This document shows, piece by piece, positions 1,315 to 63,990 of a DNA stretch of 64,000 nucleotides. The notes under the pieces were generated by a model. The model did not search any database, had not been told where the DNA came from, and worked only from the letters and a program-made list of their open reading frames with translations. The DNA comes from Lophium mytilinum (Eukaryota; Ascomycota; Dothideomycetes; Mytilinidiales; Mytilinidiaceae): contig MU004197.1 in NCBI GenBank assembly GCA_010093605.1, positions 496,001 to 560,000 on the forward strand, given 5' to 3'. The position numbers and the translations under genes are program-made. Each line of letters opens with the position of its first letter. Positions within the stretch are counted from its first letter, which is position 1.

Positions 1315-1911
1315 ATGCTTTCCTTCTCCACCGCCTTCTGTGGCGCCTGCGGTCAAACCCACTACGACATCTCCTCAGAGGCCGAGGTGAAGCTCTGGAA
1401 AGATCTGGAAGCTGCCAATGCCTCCGCCGACTCCCGCGCCGTCTCCGCCATCATCGCCATTCTCCGCGATTGTTCCGCGGCCAAAGACTGCCATGCCAAA
1501 CACACTATCCATCATGCGATCAGGCTCGAGGGTGAACGCATGAAGCTAGAGCAAGAGACGTTCGACCTGAAGGTGGAGATCAAGGATCTAAAGAAGGGAA
1601 ACGAGCGCCTCCCCAACGAGCGGTTTGATGGGCGGATGGAAAATCGAGACTTGGGCGGGAAGAAAGAGATGCTGGTTGGCGAGAAGGAGGAGGCGTCTCT
1701 GCCACGGAAACTGGTCTGCCAGGCCTGTTGCGAGAGCTCTGGAACGCGAAACAGCTTGTGTGATGGGAGGTACCCGTGTACCGAGTGTATGGCACAGGGC
1801 TATACGTGCTTCTACAAGAAGTGCTTCAAGACACGCAGCGGTGTTAGATGTAAAAGCTCTACGTGTACAATGTGGCACGGCGAGGAGGGGTATAGACATG
1901 GCGAGTTCTAG
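1315..1911 (+). CDS. Zn2Cys6 + CCCH coiled-coil family protein (paralog A)
   Basis: Single-exon gene, 198 residues, with ATG preceded by CAAC. I do not recognise a named family. The N-terminus has C9-x2-C12-x3-H16 followed by Tyr, and a conserved Cys about 45 residues later, a plausible zinc knuckle. Residues about 70-125 are charged and coiled-coil-like. The C-terminus has C135, C138, C149, C155, C158 and C165, close to a GAL4-type binuclear cluster but with a long C2-C3 gap (10 residues). C170, C179, C184 and H188 then match a CCCH finger. It ends HGEEGYRHGEF, against HxExGYG in its paralogs. It is the shortest complete member. A nuclear nucleic-acid-binding role is inferred only from the finger types. 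Structured repeat copy 1 lies upstream in the same orientation. Confidence 0.8.
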   Translation: MLSFSTAFCGACGQTHYDISSEAEVKLWKDLEAANASADSRAVSAIIAILRDCSAAKDCHAKHTIHHAIRLEGERMKLEQETFDLKVEIKDLKKGNERLPNERFDGRMENRDLGGKKEMLVGEKEEASLPRKLVCQACCESSGTRNSLCDGRYPCTECMAQGYTCFYKKCFKTRSGVRCKSSTCTMWHGEEGYRHGEF

Positions 1912-2510
1912 ACGGGGGTAGGACGTGGTCGTTGGTACGGGGACTATACAAACTGGATGTTGGGTAATTTGCAGCCCCAAACTCTACATAGTTCCGTTCG
2001 TTATTTGGGATACTTCAACATGTCATCGGAACTTGGCAGAGTGCTCAGAACCATGGAGGAAATTGATTCCACAAACAAATGCTACAGCTCTTGGACATAT
2101 TCTGGCTGTGTGAAGACACAAAACCAAACATACGGATTTTGGCCGGTAGCGTGCAGGATCTTTGCTGGGAGGTGCTCGAGAGAGCATGAAGGATTCCTAG
2201 AAAAATACTTTGGTGCTCCGGAGACTTCGAATTGTGTGATGTTCTCCTACTTGCCCGTCAGGTCAATGATGTTCGGGGGTCTGGTGCAGACAAACGTAGA
2301 AAAACTTGTGCAGTGGTGTATCCAGATGCCAAAAGGTATTTAGTGAGTTTGTCTAGTGATATCGGCACCAAGAAAACTTCCTAGTAAGGACGTAGACAAA
2401 CACTAGCACAAAGCATCTCCCCTACCTCTCACCCAGCTGTTTCAGTATCAGCCCAAAATTTCCTACCCACCGACGCATCTGGCCACTCCCACCCCACCTC
2501 CAAATCTACA
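1912..2510. other. intergenic, no supported gene
   Basis: This lies between two family paralogs on the + strand. One 128-codon ATG frame (1957-2343) exists, but it has no domain, no repeat relationship and no splice support, so I do not call it. The last ~100 nt before 2511 are C-rich, as is usual for a fungal 5' leader. Confidence 0.4.
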
Positions 2511-2990
2511 ATGGATATCATCAATACCTGTTTCCCCAAGATGCTCTGCAACGACTGCGGCACCGAGCACTACAACCTGACGGACGAAGAAGAAGACAAC
2601 CTCTGGAACATCACTGACGGTGGCGAACTAACCGCCCAAATCATGACCATCCTCCACGACAACTCAAATCGAAAGCGTTGCCTATTCGATGCCGTTAATC
2701 GCAACGACCCCTCTCTGAAGTACCGCTTGGACAAGAAGGTGGAGACTTTCACGCACTTGGAGAGAACGTTCATTGTGCTTCAGAAAGACCATGTGGATCT
2801 GAAGGCGAGTTTTGACCAGCTGAGGAAAGCTACCATGGAGCGAGTGATAGTGTACGAGAGGAGAACACGAGCTCTATTAGAGGAGAAGAAGGCGTTGGAG
2901 GCGCGGAGTACGCAGCTGGAGTTGGGGATTGCCACGTTCAAGAGTCTTGGGCTAAGCGTGATGAAGGCTAGAGGGCATGGAGACATTTGA
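2511..2990 (+). CDS. N-terminal-only paralog of the Zn2Cys6/CCCH family
   Basis: Single-exon frame of 159 residues. The N-terminus carries the family knuckle CNDCGTEHY (C13-x2-C16-x3-H20), then an acidic EEEDNLW stretch equivalent to SEAEVKLW in the 1315 paralog, and the later conserved Cys in RKRCLF. Residues about 75-150 form a charged coiled coil. The protein stops at ARGHGDI without any Zn2Cys6 or CCCH motif, and I see no convincing finger remnant in the following 230 bases. It is therefore either a truncated relic or a functional finger-less partner that could heterodimerise through the coiled coil (speculation). It is tandem with paralog A. Confidence 0.6.
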   Translation: MDIINTCFPKMLCNDCGTEHYNLTDEEEDNLWNITDGGELTAQIMTILHDNSNRKRCLFDAVNRNDPSLKYRLDKKVETFTHLERTFIVLQKDHVDLKASFDQLRKATMERVIVYERRTRALLEEKKALEARSTQLELGIATFKSLGLSVMKARGHGDI

Positions 2991-3221
2991 TGATTTATAA
3001 GTCGACGCGAAGCAGCGAAGACCCAGCATAGGGGAGATTAGACTAACTTTTGACGAAGCTGCCACATGATAACTGTGGCCCTCTTTACAGTGGCATGGGT
3101 TCAACAAGACTAAAGCCGGAGCAGTGAGATATCTACGTGCCCGGGTTTGCGACCCATGAATATCCACCATCCTCACCCAGGCCAATACCGCAAAGACCAT
3201 CCTCATCAAGCTATACATAGG

Positions 3222-4040
3222 CTACGTCTTTGTCTTGATAGCGCCCTCGCTCTGGCCAATCTCCCGTGCGATATCAGCGTCATAGCCATATCCCAATTCA
3301 TCGTGAATCGCACTGCAGTTCTTCGTCCGGCAAGCTGCTCCCTTCTTCCCCTTCTCGCCGTTCTTGTATCGTCTGCATCGACCATATTTGCAACCCTCGA
3401 CAAGCTTGTCGACAGTGCAGTGTGCACAAGGAAGTTGTCCGTCGCAGGCTCTGCGCTGGCGGTAACAAGCCACGCAAATGAGCTTACGGGATAGAGCCTG
3501 GGCGAGCATTTCGGAAGGTGTGGGGACTTTTGGACGAGACGCTGCTGCGTCTGCTGGAGCAGTAGCGGATCGAAGCGCTATCAGCTCATCGACGACAGTC
3601 TTGTAGTCATGCCGGAGGTCCGCGTAGAGGGGACGAAGTCTGTAGAGCTCCGCTTGATCCTGCTCATGTGCGAAAGTGACGATTCTGGCGTTCTCCTTGC
3701 TATCTCTGAGCCTGCGGGATAGGTCTTGGGATAGCATTTTGTAAGGCGTAGGGGCATGTGGATAAGGAGTTGCTGCGTTTGTTGGAGCAGCAGCGGGTCG
3801 AAGCTCTGTCGCCTCTTCGGCGACAGCCTTGTAGTCTTGCCGGAGGACCTCATAGAGGGGTCGAAGTCTGTCGAGCTCTGCTTGAGTCTGCTCGTGGGCG
3901 AGAGCGGTGTTTCTGGCGTTCTCCTCGCTGTCTCTGAGCCTGTCTTCAGTGTCTTTGAGCTTCTTACGCACTTCTTGTATTTTCTTGTTCGTTCTGTTGC
4001 AGGTGGAGCACTTCTTGCCGTCACAGTCCTGATCTGGCAT
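3222..4040 (-). CDS. Zn2Cys6 + CCCH coiled-coil family protein (paralog B, duplicated coil)
   Basis: Single exon, 272 residues from the ATG at 4040 (context CCAAGATGCC); the open frame extends further upstream without an ATG. The N-terminus has CDGKKCSTC in place of the usual CxxCxxxH. The middle contains two diverged direct repeats of about 80 residues, each with a RLRDSxENAR...RLRPLY..LR.DYK core and ending in a PTP-rich linker. The C-terminus has CVACYRQRRACDG, then PC-x2-C-x8-C: an exact C-x2-C-x6-C-x5-C-x2-C-x8-C GAL4-type pattern. A CCCH finger follows (C-x14-C-x4-C-x3-H) and HDELGYGYD. The basic YRQRR between Cys 2 and Cys 3 resembles the DNA-contact loop of fungal Zn2Cys6 factors, but here the cluster is C-terminal. 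Confidence 0.8.
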   Translation of the reverse strand: MPDQDCDGKKCSTCNRTNKKIQEVRKKLKDTEDRLRDSEENARNTALAHEQTQAELDRLRPLYEVLRQDYKAVAEEATELRPAAAPTNAATPYPHAPTPYKMLSQDLSRRLRDSKENARIVTFAHEQDQAELYRLRPLYADLRHDYKTVVDELIALRSATAPADAAASRPKVPTPSEMLAQALSRKLICVACYRQRRACDGQLPCAHCTVDKLVEGCKYGRCRRYKNGEKGKKGAACRTKNCSAIHDELGYGYDADIAREIGQSEGAIKTKT

Positions 4041-4451
4041 CTTGGCGACTTGTTGTGTTTGGTGCTTGGTGCTTGTTTGGGGTGGTGGAGAGGAAGGTCG
4101 AACAGCCAAAGAACTCTAGAAATCTGGGAGGGCTAATCGTACACCTCCACCCCTGTTATTTCACCACCTTCTAATTGGTTCAGAGGCTCGGCAGGATGCC
4201 TTCTAATATTCACTTTTACGTATATCGATCTGTTCGTGCATCTCTTCTGTATATAAGGTCATGCATGAAACCGTACAGCTGTATATACAGCCATTCCGCT
4301 TTATCGGCATCCTTCTCATCACATTTCGCCGTACATATGTACGTAGGGAAGCAATTACGCTATGTGTTACATTGCTATCATCGTGCCTACGTCATTATGT
4401 CTAGAAGCATCCCACATGTCTTAAAACCTTAACATACCATTGAAGATCGCC
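4041..4451. other. intergenic, no supported gene
   Basis: Promoter-side sequence of paralog B, running into the relic pair at 4452. I see no gene, RNA or repeat I can support. Confidence 0.4.
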
Positions 4452-4625
4452 TCAAGCCATGCACAATTCCATCTCCAGAACATCATCATCACCATCATTC
4501 TTGTTCTTAGGTCTTGCTTGTGGGAATACAGTACGTCCACCGCTGCCCAGGAAGTTCCCTCCCACTCGACTCGGAATATCGTGAGCCGCCTCCCGCAGGA
4601 TGTCATCGTTGAAGCCACACCATAA
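4452..4625 (-). pseudogene. C-terminal relic of the zinc-finger family (minus arm)
   Basis: On the minus strand this encodes only the tail of a family member: CGFNDDILREAAH, then SRVGGNF, then an acidic stretch ending EMELCMA and a stop. It matches, at both DNA and protein level, the tail of the gene at 8292-9215 (CGFDDDILREAAH ... EMELCLA). The match breaks off at about 4625, inside the HNEMGCG motif, so the fingers, coil and N-terminus are absent. A fragment of similar type begins at the same point on the opposite strand. Confidence 0.75.
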
Positions 4626-4627
4626 AT

Positions 4628-4866
4628 GCAAGAGCATACACGATGAGATGAGATATGGTTACGATGGTGGTATTCGGCGTCAGGCAGGACACCAGACTTC
4701 ACCTCCAGGCGGACATCACCCTATGCATGAACTTCGTGGGCCCCGGCGTCAGAAGGAGCGCGTCCTTCCCCCGATCACTGGAAAGAAATGGCCGTGGGAG
4801 GAAGGGCGCAAGGAGGCGGATGAGGAGCTTGAAGTGGAGACTGAGATGGAGTTGTGCTTAGTTTGA
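4628..4866 (+). pseudogene. C-terminal relic of the zinc-finger family (plus arm)
   Basis: On the plus strand the frame starts abruptly with CKSIHDEMRYGYDGG, the last CCCH Cys and His plus the HxExGYG motif. It continues through a proline/basic linker to an acidic tail ending EMELCLV and a stop. No start codon or upstream fingers belong to it. It lies head-to-head with the minus-strand relic, joined within the homologous finger motif. The ending EMELCLV matches EMELCLA of the gene at 8292-9215. Confidence 0.75.
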
Positions 4867-6886
4867 TGTGGAATTGTTAGTGTTGACAGGCTCGAAGTGA
4901 AGCCTCGGATGGAGCTGTGTGAGTGTCTGGCTTGGTGTAGGGCTAATCGAGTTTACGGGCTTGGATGAGTGCTATGGCGATGGATTGACATCTCGATGTG
5001 GCCGTCTTACAGCGGTCCTGAGCTGCTACATGTGCCATACTAAGCCTCTCTGAGCTTTCTGACCATTAACGAACGCAAAATGTCAAGGCTCAGAGCCTGC
5101 GAATTAGACCTTCTTATCAATGTGACTCGAGTGCTTGATATATGGTATGTGGGCAGTGATCTTGCGGGTGTGTGTGTCACGCTAAGACTCTCTCAGCCTA
5201 TTGAATATAGCGGGTCTTAAATTGTATACCCCGGACTCCATCAGTTAGCACTATGTACTATTTCTGTTAAGTTCTTGATCTGTGGCGAGTGGATTGCGGC
5301 GGTGAGGATACGTGAAGTCTGGGACTTGCAAATGTGACCCATAGTAGGCTATCTCTTCAGGCACAATATATATATACTGAACAAATCCCCGCATCTCTGA
5401 GTAGGAAGGCGAGTTCGCGTGAAGCGTCGAGGGGCACGCACAAGTCACGTACTCGCCAAATCTGGTAGCGATGGTGATATGAGGTCCGGACTGCGCGGCA
5501 GATAAGCAAGTGAGAATCCCACTACCTCACCATAAGCCTTTCGTGATCCTGATCACCCAGTCCTAGTGGAGAATAGGTTACCTTTTGACTGTTTGATCAT
5601 CTGCTATCCAGGCTACTCCTGACAGTGTTACTAAGTAAGCACGGCGAATCCTCAGCATTGGTGTATCCGATTCCGTAAGGTAGTCGAGTGGTCAAAGGGT
5701 GTTCTGCCTTCCACTGTGCCAACTTTGACCTCGCGTGCTAGTTTCCCAAAGCCTCTGAAGGCGCCTCAAGTAGCGGTAATTGAATACGTTGAGTCCATTT
5801 TCGTTAGTGCTGAGAGCCGGCCGCTTCTATACGGGATCTGTTCAAAGCCCGATATCCCTGATCGTAAGGTTATGCAGTTGGATCCCCGAGTGTCCAGCCT
5901 TGCTCACCCAACACCGCTGTGAGGAGTCACCCGCACACCACGTAGCCTACTAGCCAAAGCGTAGTCCAACTTCTACTGTGTCAACTTGAACATCGCGTTC
6001 GGGGTTTCAAAAGGGTTTGAAGGCGCCAATAGCATCGGAATAGATATGGGAGATTAGGTTGTTAAGTCTATCAAATCTCTGTATATATGTGATGCTGAAT
6101 TTTATACGCAAACGTACTTCCAAGGCGGGCGTGCTTAGGTTATGTCCGCTTGCCCATCACCGCTTGAGGTCCTTTAACCCACTGTTGCAAATTGAAACTT
6201 AACAGCTTTAGCAAACTTGATATCTCTCTGAGCCACTCCAAATGGCACCACTTCAAGTTCCGGTTGCTGCAGCCCGTGATCTGCCCAGTGTAAACGTGCT
6301 TTGCACCCAAGTCACATGGGGGCTGATTTAGCGTCTTGGCGTGAATACAAAACCTCGCCAGGTCGCCCTCGCAGAACTTTCTTTCCTTCCTCACCCACCT
6401 TCATTTTCCTTTTCGCACATGCCGCCATCAGTGCTCTGTTCTTCCTCTTCTCTCGGTTCCTTGGAAAGGTTGAGAATCGCAAACTGCGGGTCAGCTGGAC
6501 CTTGACAACTTGGACTTTGTTGTTTGGAAAGGCTGAGAATCGCAAGGCGAATTAGCTGGACCAGGAAAGGCTGTGCGAGAGTTGCGAGTGCGCGTCCGCA
6601 GCTGGACCACCTGGGAATGTTGTGAGGGCTAGGATCGTCAAACGCATTACGGGGGGGCCTTAAACAGGCCGAACGGCGAGGCGGTCTTGGTCTGATCGTC
6701 ACTACTGGGACCGCGTACGGAGAACAGCAGATGATATCAATGCAGGCGCTCGGTTTCTTCTTCTGCTGGCCGCAGCGACGAGGATTCAAGGCCCGGTAGT
6801 CGCTGTACCTCCGTCCGCAAGGGAAAGTGTGCATTAACCACGCAGCTTTTTAGGTGGCATGTGTCTTCGATCTGGCGGCATCTAAG
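4867..6886. other. 2 kb gene-poor stretch with decayed repeats
   Basis: No gene is supported. About 5712-5790 and 5966-6045 are diverged direct repeats sharing ACTGTGyCAACTT, a CGCGT core and GAAGGCGCC. About 5585-5645 (TTTTGACTGTTTG ... CTCCTGACAGTG) resembles the tandem units at 62.07-62.90 kb. About 6458-6610 holds three short units, GGAAAGG..TGAGAATCGCAA to AGCTGGACC, at about 45-60 bp spacing. About 6770-6886 resembles the segment upstream of structured repeat copy 1 and is probably its leader homolog. Confidence 0.5.
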
Positions 6887-7080
6887 GTAAGTCAGGTATG
6901 TTGTCCCTTCCCCCCAGCGCCGAGTTCGCACTTCTTCGCAGTGCTGGGGACCAGTAGCCTTCGGGCCAAGCTAGGACGAACTCATCTTGTACATAAGTCA
7001 TAGTCAATCCTTCACCTTCAAATTTACCTGTCTTCTTGATGTGACCTTGGTGATGTTATGACTTCCTGGTCTAATTGCAG
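6887..7080 (+). repeat. structured intron-like repeat, copy 2
   Basis: A 194-nt segment from GTAAGT to CTAATTGCAG, with a clear branch-like CTAAT close to the acceptor. The core differs from copies 1 and 3 only in the C-run and in one base of a predicted loop. All pairings are kept: GAGTTCG at 6922-6928 with CGAACTC at 6977-6983, and CCCCAGCGC with GTGCTGGGG. It lies 366 nt upstream of the start codon of the small gene at 7446, same strand. Of the three copies this has the best complete intron signature. Confidence 0.75.
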
Positions 7081-7445
7081 AAGAGGCAGACTCTTGGGGC
7101 GTATCGCTGTGTTATATCGGGCATTTTTTGGTTGACTGGCTCAGCGTCAGTCTAGCTTTGACAGCAAACTGCAGAATCATGAAGGAATTTGAAGCATACT
7201 TGAGTTTCGGTGGACGGCTTGGCATATAGTGAATATAACAGGTCATATAAGCGTCAGGTCCATATATCTTCGGTAGACTATTCGAACCGCACCCTTCAAG
7301 GTCACTTGACCATTCTTCCGCCGTGCACCCACAACTTCTCCACCGCAATCTTACTCTTAAATCTCAGTGCCTGCCTCTCCCCACCCACACTCTCTACACA
7401 GGCCATTCCCAGCCCCAACCAGCGCGGCCTTCCTCATCGGACATT

Positions 7446-7920
7446 ATGAGCGACACCAGTCATCAGTCGACCCCGGAGACGGCTCAAGAAACTCTCCGTC
7501 GTGTCATGAAAAACGCTCAGCAACTCATGGACGAGAGGGAGCAGGCAAAGAAAGATGGCGAAGCAAGTGCTCACTTCTCAAGCTCAATCGACTATCCATA
7601 TTGACGTTAGATATCCAGAAAGAACTGGAACACGTATTCAATGAGCGCGGAGCGCCATTAGAACCTGTGCTAGCGAACCTGGCTCAGCAAGTAAGACTTT
7701 CATTTCATTCTCGTATATTGATACACATGTGCTGACCATTTCATTATAGCAGGCTATCAACCGCGAGATTGCTGAAGCAATCCCTAAGCTCCGGAGCGCG
7801 ATAGCTGCTGTAAACGAGGAGAGTAGGAGACTTCGGCTTGGGATTTCGATCATCCTTGTCAAGGCAGCCCTTCTGCAGATTGAGGTGGACAGGATTCGGG
7901 TGAACGATGAGAGGGATTAG
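7446..7920 (+). CDS. small coiled-coil protein, 3 exons
   Basis: Predicted exons 7446-7566, 7611-7690 and 7750-7920, joined in frame to give 123 residues. Intron 1 (44 nt) has a TTGAC branch and GTTAG end; intron 2 (59 nt) starts GTAAGA and ends ATTATAG. The product is rich in Glu, Arg, Gln and Ala with heptad-like spacing throughout and no Cys or recognised domain. I do not recognise it. A decayed copy lies at about 11.6-12.2 kb behind the same structured repeat. Conserved spacing from that repeat suggests a shared leader and promoter. Intron 1 is short for a fungus, so the first splice is the weakest part of the model. Confidence 0.55.
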
Positions 7921-8291
7921 TCGGGGAAGGAGAGATTCCGATCAGAGGAGACAAGTCGATCAGCGGAACTAAGATCAAGTGACCATGCTATTCAGAGGCC
8001 TTGTGTAAACGTTGCAGGTAGAGATGGCAAAGACGCGCGCGCGACCATAATCGCGTATCGAGCGTTGACATCTTAGAGCTCTGGTCACTGGAGAAATCAA
8101 TGGTGGTGATGGGGACTTGCTTGCACATGCATGTGTTCTAGTGCTAGGTATAAGGCCAACAAGAGCATATTAGAACCAATGTCTTGCAGTTGTCTGAGTG
8201 AGATCGGTCCGTCAACAAGCTCGACAAGAGACAAATCCTTTTGCTATACCACTCTTACAAATCTATCGAACTCATATCCTCAGATGTCTCT
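7921..8291. other. intergenic; downstream part of a duplicated module
   Basis: About 7921-8090 aligns with about 12040-12215 (shared AAAGAC..GCGACCAT.rTCGCGT core), so the duplicated module extends past the stop codon of the small gene. The remainder has nothing I can support. Confidence 0.45.
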
Positions 8292-9215
8292 TCAAGCCAG
8301 ACACAACTCCATCTCCATATCGTCATAATCGTCCATATCCTTAGGTCCTGCTCGCGGAGATACAGTGCGCGCACCCCTCTCTAGGAAGTTACCTCCCACA
8401 CGACTCGAAATCTTATGAGCCGCCTCCCGCAGGATGTCATCATCGAAGCCACATCCCATCTCGTTGTGGATAATGAAGCACTTCATCCTCTGGCATGTAC
8501 GTCCCTTCCTGTTCTTGTAATAGTGGCACCGCTTGTACTCGCAGTCCCTGCCGGTGCTGGTGCAGTTCTCACAGGGAAACTGTCCGTCGCATACGTCGTG
8601 GTGGTTCCAGCAGAGTTTGGACACAAGTTTGCGAGCCGCGGCTAGGGAGGCCACGTTGTTTGAGGCTGAGTGTGCTGCGCTGCGGCAGGCTGGAAGCGGA
8701 AGAGCATAGCGAGGAGCTGAAGGGTCAGTGAGAGCCATGGAGAAAGTTCCAGTCTGGGCAACGGGAGCCTGTGAGAGTTTTTGGGGGTCAGCAGGACGCA
8801 GAGGAAGGCAGATAGTGGAGGAGGTGGTGAGAATGGCTGTGGCTCTCAATTTGGACAGTTCACTCTTCAATCTGGAGACCTCATCTTCCAATTTTGAGAT
8901 ACGGTCTGTCTTTTTCGAGTCTTCGGCGAGGAGGGTATTGTAGTTCTGGCGGACGCTTTCGAACAGTGCTCTAAGCTGTTTCTTCTCTCTCTCGCAATGT
9001 TCCAGCATGGCGCTGCTCTTATCGGCCTGCTGCTTGTGCTTACTGGCGTAGTTTCGGAGGGCCGACACCCTACGGTTTGGCTTCGTGGCACAGGTAAGGT
9101 CGGTGTGTGTCTTGTCAAGAGCGACGTGTGGCTTTGCGGAATTGACCATCTCTTTGACGAAACTGTTCATCTCTTCCGGATCTCTGCCTGCCACTTCGTG
9201 GTTGCCGTGCGACAT
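8292..9215 (-). CDS. Zn2Cys6-like + CCCH coiled-coil family protein (paralog C)
   Basis: Single exon, 307 residues, ATG at 9215. The N-terminus lacks the CxxCxxxH knuckle of its relatives, so either a first exon is missing from the model or the domain has been lost. Residues about 75-150 are a coiled coil (HCEREKKQLRALF to LKSELSKLRA), followed by a Ser/Pro/Ala linker. The finger region reads KLVSKLCWNHHDVCDGQ, where Ser replaces the first Cys of the Zn2Cys6 pattern, then PC-x2-C-x6-C. The CCCH finger is intact (C-x10-C-x4-C-x3-H) with HNEMGCGFDD. A long acidic tail ends EMELCLA. That tail is duplicated in the relics at 4452-4866. Confidence 0.75.
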   Translation of the reverse strand: MSHGNHEVAGRDPEEMNSFVKEMVNSAKPHVALDKTHTDLTCATKPNRRVSALRNYASKHKQQADKSSAMLEHCEREKKQLRALFESVRQNYNTLLAEDSKKTDRISKLEDEVSRLKSELSKLRATAILTTSSTICLPLRPADPQKLSQAPVAQTGTFSMALTDPSAPRYALPLPACRSAAHSASNNVASLAAARKLVSKLCWNHHDVCDGQFPCENCTSTGRDCEYKRCHYYKNRKGRTCQRMKCFIIHNEMGCGFDDDILREAAHKISSRVGGNFLERGARTVSPRAGPKDMDDYDDMEMELCLA

Positions 9216-9489
9216 GTTAGCAAAGATAGAGAAAAATGCTGGTGGATGGATGGTGCGCGGTTTGCACCTGCTATTGTGGTCTTCGGGTTAGGAGGAGTAT
9301 CGTATGGTCACCGGGAACAATAATGAGTGGTAAGGTAGTAGTTAGGTGCTATTCACCTTCTCTCTGGGGATGCACATGATCCAATGCTGAGTACCATGCA
9401 AAAGCTCCCCTCAGCTATCACATCTAGTCCATTGTTCCTGCCCGCTTCTTCCTCCCTTCTACCTTGTTCGCCTCTTCCTGCTGCTTCGC

Positions 9490-10403
9490 CTAGCTCTTCT
9501 TTTCTGCGTCTTCGCGGATGGCGTCGTCGAAACCATATCCGCGCTCTTCGTGTACGTTGTTGCAGTTGCTGCTCACACAACCGTTTGGCTTGCGGCCGAG
9601 CATTTGCTCCCTATAGCGACGGCAGCGGCGAAATTTACACTTCATCTTCGACTTGCTGCATTCAGAGCAGTTGGCTTCGCCATCGCAGTCTTTGTTGAGA
9701 GTGTAGCAAGGCGTGCACACAAGCTTGCGACCTGCAGTGACGGCGGAGCGCAATGCAAGCGGCTGCGAGAACGGGGTGCGCATGATTGCCTGGCTTCGAA
9801 CGTGTTCTCGGAGAACTGTCAACTCGGCGGACATGTCCTCGCGGACTCGAACAAGACGCGCTTCTGAGATGTGCTAGACACAAAGTCGTTAGCTGTGAGA
9901 TTAGAAGGACAGTTTTGAAAGTGTAAGCTTACCGCTTTCTCTGCTGCAACTCGATGAATGGTAACTTCTCTCTCCGCGGTGTCCAGCTTCGACTGTAGGT
10001 AGGCTATCTGTGCCTCGAGTGTAGCTCTCATACGAGCCTCCTCTGCCTGCATCTGTGCCTTTTCGGCCGCCTTCTCCAGCTGTACCGCCGAGAGCTTCTG
10101 CTGTAAGATGCTGATCTCCTCCTCTAAGATCTCCTCTACGCCTTCCAATGCCTCAGATAGGCATTCGTCCTTCTCTTCCCAGCGCTTGATTTCATTGGCC
10201 TGAAAGTCGATTTGACGGGCCGCAATGGCTTGCTCGCAGTTCTTCGCCAGTGTGAGATCCCGGAGGACGAGAAGGATCTCCTGTCGCTCTGACGGCTCGA
10301 GATTGTTGGTGCCAAGGAGGGAGTGCAGTCGTAGCTGTTCATTCACTTCTACGAGGTAGTGCATGCCGTTGCACGCAACGCAATGGGAAGTAGGGTACAA
10401 CAT
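9490..10403 (-). CDS. Zn2Cys6 + CCCH coiled-coil family protein (paralog D, two exons)
   Basis: Exon 1 is 10403-9933 and exon 2 is 9873-9490, with a 59-nt intron (GTAAGC, CTAAC branch, TGTCTAG) joined in frame to give 284 residues. The N-terminus has HCVACNGMHY, the family knuckle, and the later conserved Cys in AKNCEQA. Residues about 60-150 form a long Glu/Lys/Ala-rich coiled coil. Exon 2 encodes CTPCYTLNKDCDG, NC-x2-C-x6-C, a CCCH finger and HEERGYGFDD. Here the intron separates the coil from the fingers, whereas the other paralogs appear intronless. It is on the same strand as paralog C. Confidence 0.8.
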
Positions 10404-11214
10404 AGCAGCCCGCTCGTAGGAGTGCAGAGAATTGCCCCGGTGAGCTGAGAATGTGGTGAAGTAGCGGTGTTGGCGAGACGAGATGTTGAAGGGGGGAGGT
10501 TGTGAAGAGGTGAGGAGTCGAGGAGGTGCTGCGACGGGCTAGAAGTACTCGTTTGCGATGGTGCGGTGGGGATTCACCGCCCCGCTACCCGGCAGAGATG
10601 TTGTGGACAGACTGTTTACTTGGGAACGAGTGCATAAATCGGCTTTCACGTGGTATCAAGTTATGTACACGTGATCAGGCTGCTGAGTCATCTGCCAAGG
10701 CCACACGAAATATTTTCCTATAAGAGCTCGCTTGCCCGTCCAACTTCCGTTCTCGCACCACCTTCCTCACATCTTTTTTCACCACCATCTCGCATGCTAC
10801 CACCACTCTATAGGCCAGTAGATCGACTGCGGTGCGTTGGGGAATGTTCGTGGTCCCCTTCCACCGTTAAGGCAGTCTTTCGTGCGATACGAGAGGAGGA
10901 GGTTGGCCAGGAGGGCAAACGGTTTGCTTCTTTTCAGGGGGACTGTTGCGTTGGTCCTCTTTGGGGGAGACACCCTCCCGACGTCGCCTCACCATCTGTC
11001 GTTTCGCGCACGAGGAACCGTCAAGTGGTTCGAGCCGACCTCTGTCTTTGCAGCACCAAGACAAGTCCTCGTTCTCACGGCATCGCCATCGGTACCCTCG
11101 AAACGCAAGGGAGAATGCCGCGGCGATGGAGCCAGCTTTCGGATACCCAGGCCGTTCGCCCGCATACCCCCCATCGTCCGTTGGATCTCCAGGTGGCATG
11201 CACCCGCTGCTAAG
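10404..11214. other. divergent promoter region and leader of module copy 3
   Basis: The left part is the promoter side of paralog D. A TATA-like CCTATAAGAG at about 10716-10725 precedes a CT-rich stretch, plausible for a + strand transcript that would contain structured repeat copy 3. The last ~30 nt (AGGTGGCATG ... CTAAG) match the end of the copy 2 leader. Open frames in this GC-rich stretch overlap on both strands and show no domain. Confidence 0.4.
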
Positions 11215-11404
11215 GTAAGTCAGGTATGTTGTCCCTCCCCCCCCAGCGCCGAGTTCGCACTTCTTCGCAGTGCTGGGGACCAGTAGCCTTCGGGCAAAGC
11301 TAGGACGAACTCATCATGTATATAATAATTAATTCACACCCTTCAATCTAAGTCCTGACTGCCTTCTTGATATGGCTTGGTGATGTCATGACGTGTTTGT
11401 CCAG
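11215..11404 (+). repeat. structured intron-like repeat, copy 3
   Basis: A 190-nt segment from GTAAGT to CCAG. The ~105-nt core is identical to copy 1 except at its far end. The pseudoknot arms are GAGTTCG (11251-11257) and CGAACTC (11306-11312). An ATGAC branch-like motif lies about 15 nt before the putative acceptor. It is upstream of a decayed homolog of the gene at 7446, in the same orientation. Confidence 0.7.
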
Positions 11405-11676
11405 CTGCACGGTTCCAACAGGAAACTCTGCACCAGCACTTACCCATGAACAGCATCAATGGCAAATCTATCAGCATTCTCACCTGTTAGTAGCCGCCAT
11501 TGGTCTCATTGACTTCACTGCTGATCTTTGCCACCACGCCATCAAAATCTTTTCATGAACATCCTCCAGCCCGTGGGTTTCACCGGCCAGGCAGGTCGTT
11601 CTCTGAGACTACGTCATTACTTCAGCTCCCCCGTCCCAGCCAAAATCAAAGCCGACTATTCACCAGCACCGCGAAC

Positions 11677-12215
11677 ATGCTGCCTAGGATCGCGGCGTCC
11701 AAGGTACACAAAGCACTGAATGTAAGGCTACTCCCGTAGTCTCGAAAACCGCAGGAGACGATCCAAAAGTCCGAAGTGACAGCCGAAGCTGTGCTAGCAA
11801 AACCGGCTGGGGGAGTGAAAGGGCTTGTTCGATCCCGCATATCGTTCGAAAGTCGCACGCTAACGACTTGATACAGACGGCTATCGACTGAGAGCTTCTG
11901 AAAGCCTTCCCACACTCTAGAGAGCCCTGGCTGCTCTGCGCGAAGAGCGCGAGAGACTTCGGCCTGTCGAATCGGTTGCGCATATAAGGAACGCCCTACT
12001 AAGTATGGCGGTGGGTAGAGCTGAGTTGGACAATGGGAGGAATGGTTGGAGAAGGAGAGACAGACGGAGGGATATTCTCAGTCAGCTGGAGCTAGATCCA
12101 ATGACCATGGTGCTCAAGTTCTGTCTACAAATTGCATCCAAAGAAGGAAAAGACACGTATGCGACCATTGTCGCGTCACAAGTGTTGGCATTTCAGGGCG
12201 CGGATCACTAGTACA
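11677..12215 (+). pseudogene. decayed copy of the small coiled-coil gene
   Basis: DNA from about 11880 to 12215 aligns with exon 3 and downstream sequence of the gene at 7446: a GCTATC.AC..GAG start, a shared GAGACTTCGGC segment, then AAAGAC..GCGACCAT. The reading frame corresponding to exon 3 carries an in-frame stop where the intact copy has an Arg codon, plus small indels. The boundary at 11677 (an ATG in a plausible position) is approximate, and exons 1 and 2 are not clearly preserved. With structured repeat copy 3 it forms the second copy of a ~1.1 kb duplicated module. Confidence 0.6.
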
Positions 12216-13808
12216 AGTTGGGAATATCAACAGGGAATGGGGGTAGTACATATGCTCGTCCTTTGAAACTCAATAGAACGACAGTATCATTTGTTACTGC
12301 CCCAGCTATATACAAGAGTCGTACCGACTTCTCCTCAACGCCTGAGGTAATAAGAGGAAGTTAGCAACTTCGCAAATGTAAACAAGGCATTTACTTACGT
12401 GAAAGGCTTGTTAGTGGCGCCACCATCCTTCTAGCGTGTCGCAGCAGGGGACTATCAACCTCCTCCCGACCTAAATGAATGATATGGCAGTCGAGACATG
12501 CCACTGGAAAGCCTCCGGCTGGATGCGCAGTCCCTTACGAAACGAAAGTGCCATGAAGCCTCGCGAGCACAAACCCCCTTGTGAGTTGCCCCCCAGACAG
12601 GAAAGTGAGTGGCAGCTTCAGAGATCATCATGACACCAGGTTTCGCGAGTCGACAAAGGTGATGTCGGTTGTGGTGTGGTTCTCTTCGCCGAACGACGTA
12701 TGAGCTCCCACGGCACAAAAGCGTCCTTTGCCGAGCAGTTCAGCTTTCTAGCCAAACCCAAGAAAAGAGAACGAATCCGAGGATGTGGCATGTGGTGGGG
12801 GTGGGAGATCAGAGATTGAGGTGGTAGAAGGATGGAGAGAGAAAGTATTTGCGAGGAAGGACTTGCTTAAGTAGAGAGCCGGGAATGAATGATCAGTGTC
12901 GCACGTGAACGGAGGTCCAATACATGGGATCTCGTCATTCTATTCACTAATCTTTCGATTGTCCCAGATCTGAGATTCCTACTCATAAGGGACAACTCTT
13001 GTGCGATATATCAAGATATTACATGCATGCTAAAACGACGAACTGAAATTTATGAGAATAAGACTCAGACAACGCACTTGAATACAGCAAATCTTTAATC
13101 CAAGTGTAGCGGCAGTCCGAAACCATTTTAGGTGACCTCGAGAGTTGTCAAGTTTGCCAAAACTGCTACTCTACAGACTGTGATACCAGACTAAAGGGCA
13201 TCTACCAGTAACGGGCCTGAATATAGAAGACAAGCACACAAACCCAGAGAAAGAAATAGCATATAAAACCTAAATACCAAGTACATACAGCTGTCTGTGT
13301 CCAATCTATAAAGCAGCCTGTCCGTATCTATCTACTATGCAACCACCCCCAACACTGGCACAAACTAGATTAGCTTGAATAAATCTGGAACCAAACTGAA
13401 AATCCTCAATGCCACGCCAGACAGTGAAGATGTGGAGACAAACGTTCAAGTGCACCTTTTTCAACCTTGCCACTGTTGGGGGTTCCCCTAGAAACATTCG
13501 AAAGTGTAAACCAAAGCAACAGTCCATGCATTGAAGAACAGACTAGTATTTGACGGACAGCGTACTATTCAGCTGGACTGCTTCTGACAGAGATTTAGAC
13601 GAACACGACTTAAGTTAGTGTACCGTGCATAGAAGGGCAAGCTACCTTTCGACTGCCAGCCAACCATTCAAGTAGGGTCCTCCCGACAGTGACATAGACC
13701 GAGCAAGAACAAAGCCCTCATATCAGCATCCCCACACACCAGATCCACAACTGCCCCCTACGACACCACCACCCCAATCCTTCCATGCCACAACACACCT
13801 CCCTAATG
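12216..13808. other. 1.6 kb without a supported gene
   Basis: Short frames only, with no domain, splice pattern or repeat I can defend. The stretch is moderately AT-rich in its second half and lies at the 3' side of paralog E. Confidence 0.4.
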
Positions 13809-15035
13809 CTACAAACCTCTCTTCCTCTTCCCCGCCACCACCCCGCCTCCCACCTCCTCCCCGCCCCTATCCAGCGAAGCAGCCTTCCTCCTCGCCGCAT
13901 TACCAATCTGCAGATCCCACCCATACCCCAGCTCGCTATGCACCGCAACACATCTCTCCTTCGTGCAACCAAACTCTCTCGACCCGTTTGCGAGCTTCCT
14001 ATGCTGCTTGCACAGCTCGTACCGGCACTTCTGCGCGTCTCCGATGCCAACGCAGTAAGCGCAAGGATGCGCGCCATCGCAGTCTCGACCGAGCTTGCAG
14101 CAGGTCACGCAGTCGAGCTTCCGGGGCCCTGATGGGCGTGGAGAAGGGGAGATCGGGGGATAGAGCCCTGGCGGCATCGTGGGGCTGGTGGCGGGGATGA
14201 TGGGGGTTTGAGTGGGAATGGTAGGTCCGATCGTTGCTTCGTCTGAGCATTCGGACTTCAACTTCGTCTCCTCCGCGCGTTCGGAAACCGGAGCCTCCTT
14301 ACTAGCCGCCCTAAGCTGCCTGACTTCCGCAACAAGTCTATCATTGCTGTCCGTAAGCCGCTTGATCTCGCCTTGATTCGCCGCTTTCCACCTTCGCGCA
14401 TCCACCTCCGCGACCCTCAACTTTATCGAAATCGCATCACGCTCCCTCTGAAGCGCCGCTATCATACGCTTCGTGTCTATGGCCGTGACGGCCGCGATCT
14501 TCAGATAGCTAGCCTCTAGCGCACCGTGATGTTTCTCAGCTGTTTCGCGCCATTCCCTCTGGTTCTCGAACCTGTCATTGGCTATCCGCAACTCGACGCG
14601 GAGTAGATCAAGCTGCGCTGCATCGTGCTGCCGCTCTGTGTGCCACGCGGCGTGCTCTTCTTTCAGCGCGTCGTGCAACTCGGCGGCTGATTCGCGCTGG
14701 AGCTTCTCGTTCGCGTACCGCTCGTTGGCAATCTGCACCTCGACGCGGAGTAGATCGAGCTGCTCTACGTTGTGCTTCCGCTCCGTGTCCCGTGCGGCGT
14801 GTTCTTCCTCTCGTGCCTTTATGAAAGCATGCTGTTCCATCCTTAACTCGTTAGCCTCGGCGGCGAGCGTGGCCACTGCGCAGTCGATGGATGCGCGGAT
14901 CTCGTGTGCTGCGTCGGTAGAGTCTGCCGTCCGGTATCGATCGATGAGGAGCATCAAGGCGGCTTGGTTGGAGGGTACGGGGATCTCGTGGTGGGTCTGG
15001 CAGATACGGCAGGGCGTGGACCCGGAGGAGGACAT
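13809..15035 (-). CDS. Zn2Cys6 + CCCH coiled-coil family protein (paralog E, longest)
   Basis: Single exon, 408 residues, ATG at 15035. The N-terminus has CRICQTHH (CxxCxxxH) with a conserved Cys about 45 residues later. Residues about 65-255 are a long coiled coil containing a direct duplication of about 50 residues (cores QLDLLRVEVQIANERY and QLDLLRVELRIANDRF). A Pro/Thr/Ser linker follows. The fingers read CVTCCKLGRDCDG, PC-x2-C-x8-C, then a CCCH finger and HSELGYGWD. The end, KRKRGL, is a basic nuclear-localisation-like tail. It is the only member here with such a tail and the one that best supports a nuclear role. Confidence 0.85.
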   Translation of the reverse strand: MSSSGSTPCRICQTHHEIPVPSNQAALMLLIDRYRTADSTDAAHEIRASIDCAVATLAAEANELRMEQHAFIKAREEEHAARDTERKHNVEQLDLLRVEVQIANERYANEKLQRESAAELHDALKEEHAAWHTERQHDAAQLDLLRVELRIANDRFENQREWRETAEKHHGALEASYLKIAAVTAIDTKRMIAALQRERDAISIKLRVAEVDARRWKAANQGEIKRLTDSNDRLVAEVRQLRAASKEAPVSERAEETKLKSECSDEATIGPTIPTQTPIIPATSPTMPPGLYPPISPSPRPSGPRKLDCVTCCKLGRDCDGAHPCAYCVGIGDAQKCRYELCKQHRKLANGSREFGCTKERCVAVHSELGYGWDLQIGNAARRKAASLDRGGEEVGGGVVAGKRKRGL

Positions 15036-18143: not shown

Positions 18144-18346
18144 AATTTGTCGTATTCAAAATGGAGTACATTCCTTAGCGTTTTTCTCCGTGCACCCCCC
18201 CTAATTTTATAAGCGCGCGCCTAGGATTATTAGATAGGTTATATATTAATTTTTAACTACTTTTTAATATACCTATATTAGCTATTAGTAAGGCCTCTTA
18301 TATATATATTAGAGCTTATATACTAATAATTTTTAGTATTTCTAGT
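18144..18346 (+). repeat. outer terminal inverted repeat, left
   Basis: This 203-bp arm begins AATTTGTCGTATT and includes a 7-C run and GCGCGCGCCT. It matches the reverse complement of 30495-30697 at about 95%; the differences are nearly all transitions plus one single-base indel. Confidence 0.85.
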
Positions 18347-19480: not shown

Positions 19481-19582
19481 GGTTAAGGCCTAAGTATATA
19501 CTATATATAGCCTTTCTATTTAATATATACTCTATATATAGCCTTACTATTTTAGCCTTACTATTTTCTATATACTCTCTAG

Positions 19583-49330: not shown

Positions 49331-50007
49331 GGTGATGTGTGGGATTTTAATATCTTACTTCCTGGGTCTTGACTTCGCCGTTCTCGCTGGTAAGCTTTCT
49401 GGGCGTCTTTTCCGATGCCGACAAGTCTGAGCTCTACCTTCATCTCTTCTACTCAAAGCCCACGCGCTGGGCTTGTTCTTTCTTTCTTCACTTAACCGTC
49501 TCTAGCCTTGCCACCGGGAAACAAACGACAGAAACAGCACCGCTCTCAGAAAGCCCGCGCAATCTCCAGTTCGCGACCTGCCACGGCTTCGATCACCGCT
49601 GCGAGGGCGCGTTCCCATGCCATACGTGCATGAATAAAAGTGAAGGGGACAAGTGCCGATGTGACATCTCCAAAGAGCATGAGAAGTTAGCGAGGGGAAG
49701 CGAGCGTACGGTTGCTGAGATGGCAACTGTGGTGCCGCTTCTGAAGAGCTCAGGTTTAGGTCGGACGAGAGTATCAAGGATGCTGGTTTCAATAGAACTG
49801 CTACTTGCTAGAAAGGTGAAAGCGGTTGAAAAGGTGAAGGGTAAAAAGCGCGTCAAGCGGGATGGCTATGAGATGAGGAAGGCTGCCGAAGATGTTGAGA
49901 AGAGGGCTAATGATGAGGCGACGGATGTGGATAAGCTGGCTTCGCGGAAGCAGAGGAAGGGGGATGCGTTCAAATTGGCGGGGATAAGGGGCTTTGGCGC
50001 TATGTAG
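49331..50007 (+). pseudogene. decayed Zn2Cys6/CCCH family copy
   Basis: The + frame contains TCHGFDHRCEG, PCHTC, C and CRCDISKEHEKLARGSERT, which aligns with CCKLGRDCDG ... CKQHRKLANGSREF of paralog E. The first Cys of the Zn2Cys6 pattern is gone (FATC instead of CxxC) and no CCCH finger or GYG motif follows. The frame has no ATG upstream of the fingers. A GTAAGC...CTTAAC..CTCTAG intron-like stretch lies in front, but joining it does not lead to the Cys frame. The remainder is Lys/Arg/Glu-rich. I read it as a degenerate family member inside the conserved block. Confidence 0.5.
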
Positions 50008-60662: not shown

Positions 60663-61664
60663 CTATCGGACCTGGTAAACCTTCTCGTCGTGAACGAAGC
60701 CGCAATCCGGGTTCAAACAGCCAACTTCGGTGTTGAAGTAAGCGCACCTGCTATACTTGCAAGTCAGATGATCCCGTCTGCAAAGCTTGCATGGGTAGCC
60801 ACCGCTGCATTCCACTCTGAGCGTATAGCACTTTTTGCACGTCAGCTTGCGACCTCTCCCTCCACGGGGCGGCATATGGGGCAGAGTATCTTCGACGTTT
60901 GCGCCCGTTGGAGCGGCAGGCAAGGGATGAATATTGACACCAGTCAGCGGAGGCATAGTCCTCTCCCGCAAGTTTCGCGCCGGGTTCGGGGCGGCAGGTA
61001 CATGTCTGGACTTCGCGATGCCTATTGGAGCAGCGCCCATGAAAGCCTTGCGACGGAGGTCTGCAACGCTCGGTCGGCGCTGCAGCGTATGGCGCTGATT
61101 ACCGTTGCCAGCAGCTGGAGTTTGTTCCCGTCCCTGGGCCCTCTCGAGCTGGCTCGCCAACTGCAGATTCTCTTCCCGGAGCTGCGCGATCATGTTGTCT
61201 TTGGCCTTCTTGCCTTCCTCCCACTTCTCTTCGATCCCCATGTGTAGGTCTTCATTTTGCTGGAGCGCACGTTCTTGGCCCTGCAGTTTGCGCTGCAGTT
61301 CAGTGATTAGATTGTTCTTCGTGTCGCGCTCGTGCTCTGCGGTAGCTAGCTCAGCGCGCGCGAGTTGGGTGTTGGTGTGGAGGGTTTCGTTCTCCTTCAT
61401 TGTGTCTTCTAGTTGGGCGATTATTCCCATCTTGTCATCGTGCTCCCGCTCTGCGGTCGCCAGCGCGTCACGCACGGCCTCTTGGCTCGCGCAGATTTTG
61501 GAAGTAGAGACATCTTGGAGAACGTCGCGGAGTTTGTCCTTCTCGATGGTGGAGAGGGTATCAAGTTCTTTGAACAGGGCCCAGAGATCTTTCTCGTCAT
61601 CGGCGGTGAGGACCCAATGGTCAGATTGGCAGATAGGGCAATGGCGGATGCCATACGTGTCCAT
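60663..61664 (-). CDS. Zn2Cys6 + CCCH coiled-coil family protein (paralog F)
   Basis: Single exon, 333 residues, ATG at 61664. The N-terminus has HCPICQSDHW (CxxCxxxH) followed by DDEKDLW, equivalent to EEEDNLW of the 2511 paralog, and the later Cys in SKICASQ. Residues about 65-190 are a coiled coil with two similar AExEHDxK units. A Pro/Arg-rich linker leads to CKKCYTLRVECSGG, PC-x2-C-x6-C, then C-x8-C-x4-C-x3-H (CCCH) and HDEKVYQVR. The GYG ending is replaced by KVY. It is about 45 kb from paralog E, across the transposon and conserved blocks. Confidence 0.85.
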   Translation of the reverse strand: MDTYGIRHCPICQSDHWVLTADDEKDLWALFKELDTLSTIEKDKLRDVLQDVSTSKICASQEAVRDALATAEREHDDKMGIIAQLEDTMKENETLHTNTQLARAELATAEHERDTKNNLITELQRKLQGQERALQQNEDLHMGIEEKWEEGKKAKDNMIAQLREENLQLASQLERAQGREQTPAAGNGNQRHTLQRRPSVADLRRKAFMGAAPIGIAKSRHVPAAPNPARNLRERTMPPLTGVNIHPLPAAPTGANVEDTLPHMPPRGGRGRKLTCKKCYTLRVECSGGYPCKLCRRDHLTCKYSRCAYFNTEVGCLNPDCGFVHDEKVYQVR

Positions 61665-63027: not shown

Positions 63028-63990
63028 TCAACACCCATATCCGGGCTCGTCATGAACGGATCTGCAATCCACTAATTCACAATCTTCGTCCCCGTACTTG
63101 ACGTACCAGCACAGAGCAAAACGGCATCCTAAACGACTCAATAGACAAGCCTGGCAAGGAAACTTGCCGTCGCAGCCGATTTTGCGAACAAGGCAGTTGA
63201 TACATACGAGCTCGCGAGGAGGTGATATGGGGATGATGCTATGGGGTGAAATATCTCGCGAACTCAGCTTCGAAGCACTAGGCGTCATGGTAGGCAAAGA
63301 ATGGTCGCTGTCCTCCATGATTGAGCTTCCGCGGTGACTTGGAGGGAGTCCGAGATATCCAGGATAGTCGCTGAGAGTGAGCTTCTCTGCTTCAGTCCTC
63401 TTGATATTTGGGAGAAGCTGCTGTCTACGCTGCTCCATTTCGGCCATCTCTGTGCGGAGCTGCTCCTCGGGTTGTGAAGCCTCTGACTGCTCGCCTGGCC
63501 CCTGTGATCCTTCAGGGCGGAGTCCGAGGCGAAGAAATGGCACCTTCTCCTTTTTTGTTTTTTTCTGTGGCTTCGTTGCGTCCTTTGCCGCTCCTTTGCG
63601 CTTCAACCCCTTGGGTTGGGGTTCTATGACACTCTGTGGGGCCTTTATCTTTGCCTCTAGCACAACGCCCTTACGGGTTGAGGCAGAAGCTTCATCAACC
63701 TGGGCTTTCACGGTCCCCTGTTTCTCCGTTACCTTTCTTTCTAGCGCCACACGCCCCTGCGCCAACGCAAAGACTTCCTGGGCGAGGGTCTGGTTCTCTC
63801 GGAGAAGGGTCTTGTTGGCGCAGGCTTGTGCAGCACAACGATCTTCCAAGAGGTTGGAGATATCTTCCTTCACTTCGGTATCACTGGTTTCCTTTGAGAA
63901 GGCTAAGAGGAGCTTTTCGTTTTCGTCTTCGGGGAGTATGTAGTGACCCGTCTGGCACATCGGGCAGGGTTGGCGTCTAGGCATTTCCAT
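63028..63990 (-). CDS. Zn2Cys6 + CCCH coiled-coil family protein (paralog G)
   Basis: Single exon, 320 residues, ATG at 63990, close to the window edge but apparently complete. The N-terminus has CPMCQTGHY (CxxCxxxH) and the later Cys in AQACANKT. Coiled coil occupies about residues 50-115, with a second helical stretch at 165-200. The linker between them is Lys-rich (KRKGAAKDATKPQKKTKKEK), a possible nuclear-localisation signal. The C-terminus has CINCLVRKIGCDG, PC-x2-C-x6-C and a CCCH finger. The protein ends directly after HDEPGYGC, without the tail seen in paralog C. Confidence 0.85.
   Translation of the reverse strand: MEMPRRQPCPMCQTGHYILPEDENEKLLLAFSKETSDTEVKEDISNLLEDRCAAQACANKTLLRENQTLAQEVFALAQGRVALERKVTEKQGTVKAQVDEASASTRKGVVLEAKIKAPQSVIEPQPKGLKRKGAAKDATKPQKKTKKEKVPFLRLGLRPEGSQGPGEQSEASQPEEQLRTEMAEMEQRRQQLLPNIKRTEAEKLTLSDYPGYLGLPPSHRGSSIMEDSDHSLPTMTPSASKLSSRDISPHSIIPISPPRELVCINCLVRKIGCDGKFPCQACLLSRLGCRFALCWYVKYGDEDCELVDCRSVHDEPGYGC

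What the first reader, a model, noticed from the sequence alone, without database searches (positions are those of the whole stretch)
1315..15035. Locally expanding family combining a C-terminal GAL4-type Zn2Cys6 cluster with a CCCH finger and an N-terminal CxxCxxxH knuckle
Six apparently intact genes in this window (1315, 3222, 9490, 13809, 60663, 63028) share one C-terminal pattern: C-x2-C-x6/10-C-[DS]G-x3-C-x2-C-x6/8-C-x4-C-x8/14-C-x4-C-x3-H, mostly ending HxExGYG. A seventh (8292) has it with one Cys lost. Most also have CxxCxxxH plus a later Cys at the N-terminus and a coiled coil between. Zn2Cys6 is normally N-terminal in fungal regulators and CCCH fingers normally bind RNA; fusing the two at the C-terminus behind a coiled coil is unusual. 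The coils, linkers and tails vary strongly while the metal ligands persist, suggesting selection on the fingers. A nuclear DNA- or RNA-binding role is inference.
Basis: partly seen in the sequence, partly recalled or inferred. Interest (0 to 1): 0.85.

Follow-up and report, generated by a model that had tools for sequence, protein, structure and literature searches.

The report
Clustered fungal coil-and-zinc-cluster protein family
A fungus carries a cluster of old, strongly diverged sister genes for probable nucleic-acid-binding proteins that join a long helix to a tail with a yeast-Gal4-type zinc cluster plus one more probable zinc site; the parts are of known kinds, but I found no name for the combination.

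Summary
Seven genes carry the C-terminal pattern (8292 with its first Cys replaced by Ser); 0 of 200 shuffles gave a match. Gene 9490 needs a 59-bp intron. An eighth gene (2511) has only the N-terminal half; 3222 and 8292 lack the N-terminal unit. Three partial, decayed copies lie at 4.5-4.9 and 49.5 kb.

The Zn2Cys6 half is real: one of seven modules passes Pfam's Zn_clus cut-off and four match below it, a profile finds Put3 in the PDB, and template-free models rank Pho7/Put3/Hap1 first with weak E-values. The CCCH half rests on ligand conservation. The N-terminal CxxCxxxH...C unit and a long helix are modelled confidently in 60663.

'Locally expanding' is not supported: synonymous sites are saturated or close to it in 21 of 21 pairs, so the paralogues are old. 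A coil before a C-terminal zinc cluster has precedent in PacX, a C-terminal cluster in Ume6. The appended CCCH motif, the N-terminal zinc unit and the half-proteins are what differs.

Most likely: oligomeric nuclear regulators with a three-zinc nucleic-acid-binding tail whose contact surface has changed (no Lys/Arg before Cys3 in 7 of 7). No fungal genome could be searched; distribution and expression are untested.

The parts
1315..1911 (+). Family member, 198 aa: N-module, short coil-like stretch, C-module at 1705-1893 (Cys2-Cys3 loop of 10 residues instead of 6)
2511..2990 (+). Family member, 159 aa: N-module and coil-like stretch only, no C-module found in or just behind it
3222..4040 (-). 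Family member, 272 aa: coil with an in-frame 76-residue tandem duplication, C-module at 3288-3488; no N-module
4452..4640 (-). Partial, decayed copy of the 3' end of a gene like 8292 (77% DNA identity over 168 bp)
4624..4863 (+). Second partial 3' end on the other strand (34% identical to 8292 over 79 columns), overlapping the first by 17 bp
8292..9215 (-). Family member, 307 aa: coil, C-module at 8448-8633 with Cys1 replaced by Ser; no N-module
9490..10403 (-). Family member, 284 aa from two exons (9933-10403 and 9490-9873) with intron 9874-9932; N-module, helix-rich stretch, C-module at 9535-9732
13809..15035 (-). Family member, 408 aa: N-module, helix-rich middle with a 49-residue in-frame repeat, C-module at 13923-14123
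49537..49775 (+). Decayed C-module copy: Zn2Cys6 part 40% identical to 13809 over 55 residues with ligands lost; the CCCH part is in another frame, with a stop inside and its His lost
60663..61664 (-). Family member, 333 aa, modelled full length: N-module, one helix 39-180, disordered linker, C-module at 60672-60851
63028..63990 (-). Family member, 320 aa: N-module, C-module at 63037-63225; the only one of the seven modules above the Pfam Zn_clus cut-off

Best explanation
An old, clustered family of fungal regulators that act as coiled-coil oligomers in the nucleus. A small N-terminal zinc site (CxxC, His and a Cys about 42 residues on, inside the start of a long helix) caps a coil that brings two or more chains together. 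A flexible linker carries a compact three-zinc tail: a Gal4-type Zn2Cys6 cluster and, after four residues, a CCCH-type site. The tail binds nucleic acid, most likely DNA, but not through the usual Gal4-type contact, because no Lys or Arg stands before Cys3 in any of the seven. Half-proteins (2511 with coil and no tail; 3222 and 8292 with coil and tail but no N-cap) may pair with full ones and modulate them. Shown: ligands, architecture, decayed copies, the Zn2Cys6 likeness by profile and model. Inferred: zinc occupancy, oligomerisation, nuclear site, nucleic-acid binding, pairing of half-proteins.
For: Ligand columns hold 62 of 65 C-module Cys and 18 of 21 N-module Cys at a mean identity of only about 38% and 25%. 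Zn_clus: 63028 28.7 bits full length and 32.7 as module against a cut-off of 21; 5 of 7 modules match at E up to 10. The module profile finds Put3 at 4.4e-05, and 15 of its 22 PDB matches up to E 10 are zinc-cluster chains. Template-free models show a short helix after Cys1 and after Cys4, and the top six PDB matches of the full-length model are Pho7, Put3 and Hap1 entries. N-unit pLDDT 86-96, helix 39-180 mostly 94-98, linker 182-272 mostly below 50. No strongly hydrophobic leader or membrane stretch. PacX, with the same order of coil and cluster, is nuclear, and an allele that keeps its coil but loses its cluster is partly dominant (PMC4832277).
Against: 1 of 7 modules passes the Zn_clus cut-off; 1315 and 13809 do not match it at all. 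The CCCH half has no profile match above cut-off, no PDB match and a poor model. Seven unrelated Cys-rich peptide chains score E 0.013-0.12 with the module profile, so Cys spacing alone inflates scores. Foldseek E-values are weak (0.33-2.3; 0.86-1.4 for the four zinc-cluster matches) and superposition is close for Put3 only (1.0-1.5 A), while Pho7 gives 5.5-9.1 A there and Put3 5.8 A. NLS-like motifs occur in 4 of 8 proteins, about what shuffles give. Heptad periodicity is not significant in four of eight. Raw identity of the N-units (25%) is no higher than that of the middles (26%); only the shuffle z-scores separate them, and two N-unit pairs are at z 1.2 and 2.0. No basic residue before Cys3 speaks against ordinary zinc-cluster DNA binding. 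No expression data.
Confidence: 0.5

Rival explanations
1. RNA-binding regulators: the CCCH-type site is the working part, as in Nab2-like fingers, and the Zn2Cys6 part has become a structural prop.
For: 60663 has a weak Nab2-like CCCH match (E 0.054 full length; 0.0055 as module). The CCCH half is basic in five of seven (net +4 to +7). No basic residue before Cys3 in the Zn2Cys6 half.
Against: 1 of 7 modules matches a CCCH family at all, and below the cut-off (17.0 bits against 27). The charge of the half is negative in that very module and in 63028 (-2 and -3). No PDB match for the half alone.
Confidence: 0.2
2. Zinc-stabilised protein-protein adaptor: coil and metal sites build an assembly and no nucleic acid is bound.
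For: No Lys or Arg before Cys3 in 7 of 7; the N-unit has no significant relative in Pfam or the PDB.
Against: Net positive charge of the Zn2Cys6 part in 7 of 7 modules (+1 to +8); the best solved relatives of that part are DNA-binding regulators.
Confidence: 0.17
3. Decaying remnants of an ancestral dual zinc regulator: most copies are no longer functional and the pattern is ancestry rather than present selection.
For: Three decayed partial copies, one lost Cys1, three half-proteins; a coil repeat in 3222 with dN about equal to dS (0.247 and 0.248).
Against: 62 of 65 Cys remain in ligand columns although synonymous sites are saturated or nearly so; the frames of the seven C-module proteins, 198-408 codons, stay open.
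Confidence: 0.13

Closest known systems
PacX of Aspergillus nidulans (PMC4832277)
   Same: Amino-terminal coiled coil, carboxy-terminal zinc binuclear cluster; homologues reported within the Leotiomyceta
   Different: PacX is a 661-residue protein with the cluster at 445-472; 'CCCH' occurs 0 times in the paper's text. PacX lacks a Pro one or two residues before Cys4, whereas 6 of 7 here have it directly before Cys4. No N-terminal zinc unit and no clustered family are described in the parts I read.
Dual-specificity factors 'Zn cluster + C2H2/CCHC/CCCH' (Shelest 2017, PMC5415576)
   Same: One protein with a Zn cluster and a second type of zinc finger; 140 of 191 fungal TFomes have some, at most 23 in one genome
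   Different: That group merges C2H2, CCHC and CCCH; the A. nidulans examples shown are two C2H2 domains followed by a cluster, N-terminal in all but AN1705. The order, the type of second finger and the coil differ here.
Fungal Zn2Cys6 family, Pfam PF00172 (Put3, Pho7, Hap1 as solved relatives)
   Same: Six-Cys spacing, CDGxxPC-type core, two short helices in the model
   Different: C-terminal position, coil before instead of after, no basic residue before Cys3, immediate continuation into a second metal site
Ume6 of Saccharomyces cerevisiae
   Same: C-terminal Zn2Cys6 cluster that binds DNA (title of Anderson 1995 seen in reference lists only)
   Different: I know of no coil-and-CCCH arrangement there (recalled)
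Nab2-like CCCH, Pfam PF22683
   Same: C-x4-C-x3-H end and a sub-threshold match of 60663
   Different: 6 of 7 modules do not match; the loop before it is 8-14 residues

Membership tests
Fungal Zn2Cys6 (PF00172) | Six Cys in binuclear-cluster spacing | tested here: met
   6 of 7 modules complete, 8292 lacks Cys1
Fungal Zn2Cys6 (PF00172) | Pfam gathering score (21 bits) | tested here: inconclusive
   Modules: 63028 32.7; 8292 18.9, 60663 17.1, 3222 14.3, 9490 7.3 below it; 1315 and 13809 no match
Fungal Zn2Cys6 (PF00172) | Fold of solved clusters | tested here: inconclusive
   Top matches are Pho7, Put3, Hap1 in both searches; Put3 1.0-1.5 A over 36 columns, but E-values 0.33-2.3 and larger rmsd for the rest
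Fungal Zn2Cys6 (PF00172) | Basic residue immediately before Cys3 (Lys in Put3 and Pho7, alignments) | tested here: not met
   G, A, E, D, D, V, L in the seven
CCCH zinc finger | C-x7/8-C-x5-C-x3-H (recalled) | tested here: not met
   C-x8/14-C-x4-C-x3-H in 7 of 7; broader CCCH definitions would admit it (recalled)
CCCH zinc finger | Profile match above cut-off | tested here: not met
   0 of 7; best is 60663 to PF22683 at 17.0 bits against 27; no PDB match for the half
PacX homologues | N-terminal coil and C-terminal zinc cluster | tested here: met
   Model of 60663; description of PacX
PacX homologues | No Pro one or two residues before Cys4 | tested here: not met
   Pro directly before Cys4 in 6 of 7
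PacX homologues | Sequence homology to PacX | not testable with these tools
   No collection of fungal proteins was on hand; not tried
Dual-specificity Zn cluster + zinc finger factors | Two recognised DNA-binding domains by domain annotation | tested here: inconclusive
   Zn_clus passes in 1 of 7, no second finger passes in 7
Lineage-restricted family | Restricted distribution among fungi | not testable with these tools
   No fungal genome collection; nulls in viral and prokaryote contigs say nothing on this

The most novel reading that the evidence does not exclude
A fungal-specific regulator family with its own three-zinc tail, in which a Gal4-type cluster and a CCCH-type site form one unit that reads a new kind of target (or DNA and RNA together), while clustered full-length, coil-only and tail-only paralogues combine through their coils into many different complexes.
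Probability: 0.17. Interest if true: 0.65.

Novelty: new variant of a known kind. Interest (0 to 1): 0.45.

Why it matters
If the tail is one folded unit it would be a new use of the zinc cluster, which is more numerous than all other transcription-factor groups in ascomycetes (PMC5415576). It would also allow a direct test of what a long coil before a C-terminal cluster is for, which the PacX authors left open. The survival of many paralogues next to a strongly RIP-mutated block is of interest too.

Tried and rejected
Chance Cys-rich ORFs: rejected (0 of 200 shuffles; 21 module pairs align at z 6.6-18.2 against 30 shuffles each). Recent local expansion: rejected by synonymous divergence. dN/dS of fingers against coil across paralogues: not estimable, because dS is infinite in 13 and 1.35-2.40 in 8 of 21 module pairs and the middles hardly align better than shuffled sequence (20 of 21 pairs under z 3, one at 3.7). 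Secreted or membrane protein: no strongly hydrophobic stretch. Nuclear localisation signals: about as many as chance gives. Transposon protein: no transposon domain among Pfam matches of the members at E up to 10 apart from a sub-threshold Zn_ribbon_InsA match of one N-unit at E 0.1. Match 59726-59947 to the N-profile (6.9 bits): rejected, it matches DPBB_1 just below the cut-off. N-profile match to a TFIID subunit in the PDB at E 0.22: treated as chance. Scorpion-toxin match of module 9490 (E 2.5): treated as Cys-spacing noise. Relatives in viral contigs (3 scans, 0 relatives) and prokaryote contigs (1 scan, 0 relatives): no information on a fungal family. Paper searches: nine counted; no listed title or abstract start describes a Zn2Cys6-plus-CCCH fusion, but the lists showed only part of what matched, and the library holds open-licence papers only. 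One paper search was left unused.
Full report
What the window is. No genome is held for the 64-kb window. By its content it is from a filamentous ascomycete: core genes such as NAP, a 2-hydroxyacid dehydrogenase, a myosin with IQ and DIL domains and a dynamin, and an AT-rich block at 18-30 kb with the dinucleotide signature of RIP (TpA/ApT 1.68-2.00, second index 0.22-0.52). RIP as a sign of Pezizomycotina is recalled knowledge. The species is unknown to me.

The observation. A six-frame regular expression for the whole C-terminal pattern gives six matches and none in 200 shuffles. The seventh gene, 8292, has Ser for Cys1. A profile of the seven modules scores each at 72-88 bits and a further, decayed copy at 49.5 kb at 20 bits. 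3222 and 8292 have no N-unit. The profiles were built from these same sequences, so their own scores are high by construction; the independent evidence is the shuffle control and the pairwise alignments. Against 30 shuffles each, 21 module pairs align at z 6.6-18.2 and 15 N-unit pairs at z 1.2-12.3; of 21 pairs of middle regions 20 are under z 3 and one (1315/13809) is at 3.7. Raw identity over aligned positions is 38% for C-modules, 25% for N-units and 26% for the middles, so for the N-unit the case rests on the z-scores and on the ligand columns, not on identity. In the alignments 13 of 59 gap-free C-module columns and 5 of 64 gap-free N-unit columns are invariant, against a mean of 0.00 when rows are shuffled (0 of 2000 reach it).

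Gene structures. Six of the seven C-module genes, and 2511, are single reading frames from ATG. 9490 consists of exons 9933-10403 and 9490-9873 joined across a 59-bp GT-AG intron in phase 0 that contains CTAAC, a branch-site-like sequence; the joined protein has 284 residues. The coil of 3222 holds an in-frame tandem duplication of 76 residues (dN 0.247, dS 0.248) and that of 13809 one of 49 residues (dN 0.26, dS 0.71).

Age. Across the seven modules dS is infinite in 13 and 1.35-2.40 in 8 of 21 pairs. The paralogues are therefore old. The closest duplicate is a partial 3' end at 4452-4640, 77% identical in DNA to 8292 over 168 bp; a second partial 3' end lies on the other strand and overlaps it by 17 bp. 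The copy at 49.5 kb has lost ligands, and its CCCH part lies in another frame with a stop inside. The picture is birth and death in place, not a recent burst.

Zn2Cys6 half. Pfam Zn_clus (cut-off 21 bits), scanned module by module: 63028 32.7, 8292 18.9, 60663 17.1, 3222 14.3, 9490 7.3, none for 1315 and 13809; full length, 63028 has 28.7. The module profile finds Put3 in the PDB at 4.4e-05 and Pho7 at 0.003; 15 of 22 matches up to E 10 are zinc-cluster chains and 7 are unrelated Cys-rich peptides at 0.013-0.12. A template-free model of the 63028 module (mean pLDDT 77.8 for the best, 50.8-65.8 for the other four) and of full-length 60663 both rank Zn2Cys6 structures first in the PDB. E-values are weak (0.86-1.4, 0.33-2.3). 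Put3 superposes at 1.0-1.5 A over 36 columns, but at 5.8 A, and Pho7 at 4.6-9.1 A. The residue before Cys3 is Lys in Put3 and Pho7 (alignments) and G, A, E, D, D, V or L here. That this region contacts DNA in Gal4-type proteins is recalled.

CCCH half. C, C, C, H and a following E are invariant in seven of seven. 0 of 7 pass a Pfam CCCH cut-off; 60663 has a Nab2-like match at 17.0 bits against 27 as a module and 13.8 at full length. The half alone finds nothing in the PDB up to E 10. In the full-length model it has pLDDT about 43-65, and in the module model it is drawn as strands. A third zinc of CCCH kind is the simplest reading of invariant ligands but is not shown; the tools gave no coordinates in which to measure the site.

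N-unit and coil. CxxCxxxH and a Cys about 42 residues on are invariant in six of six, with one Leu. The model of 60663 shows a hairpin at 5-8 and 15-18, a helix 21-32 and one helix from 39 to 180 in which the last Cys (58) lies. Pfam gave three matches of one member each at E 0.086-0.1, far below cut-off, and the PDB one at E 0.22; none of the Foldseek matches of the full model is significant. My simple heptad test is significant in two of eight proteins only, so the oligomer is an inference. The model is a monomer prediction from nine rows of this window, one of them partly unspliced.

Function. No strongly hydrophobic leader or membrane stretch; NLS-like motifs in 4 of 8 proteins, about what shuffles give. 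The best reading is an oligomeric nuclear regulator with a nucleic-acid-binding tail. The closest characterised protein in layout that I found is PacX: nuclear, N-terminal coil, C-terminal cluster, required for repression of pacC; an allele that keeps the coil and loses the cluster is partly dominant (PMC4832277: abstract, sections 14 and 17 and found passages read). By analogy only, 2511 could act in the same way on its relatives.

Literature. Shelest 2017 (PMC5415576, section 9 and found passages read) counts Zn cluster plus C2H2-like factors in 140 of 191 fungal TFomes, at most 23 in one genome, with CCCH merged into C2H2. PMC9232553 and PMC8637145 were seen in passages only; PMC8224235 and PMC2447501 only for the cited title on Ume6. 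Nine counted searches listed no paper whose title or abstract start describes a C-terminal Zn2Cys6-CCCH unit; several lists were cut short, and subscription papers are not in that library.

Verdict. A real, old, clustered family; known kinds of parts in an order that I did not find described; a new variant of a known kind. Interest is moderate because distribution, expression and binding are untested.

Noticed in passing
18144-30697: A 12.5-kb AT-rich block (31-39% GC) with a strong RIP signature, bounded by a 197-bp inverted repeat (95% complementary); its longest stop-free stretch is 77 codons. Of three frames of 80 codons or more listed at 18-31 kb, one crosses its right edge and two lie outside. 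Probably a RIP-mutated element or nest of elements.
   Followed up: partly
882-1053, 6885-7056, 11205-11398: A repeat of about 170-190 bp in three copies, all on the + strand among the family genes, 84-90% identical, with a nearly invariant core of about 100 bp that can form a GC-rich hairpin (fold little better than shuffles: z -0.9 to -1.3). No Rfam match.
   Followed up: partly
4452-4863: Two partial 3' ends of 8292-like genes on opposite strands that overlap by 17 bp at their truncated sides, as if joined by a rearrangement.
   Followed up: partly
21382-21619 and 28360-28597: A 238-bp direct repeat, 92% identical, inside the RIP-mutated block; possible long terminal repeats.
   Followed up: no
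16128-17213: Coil-rich ORF of 361 aa beside the cluster without a recognised domain (best Pfam match HALZ, below cut-off); not picked up by either family profile.
   Followed up: no
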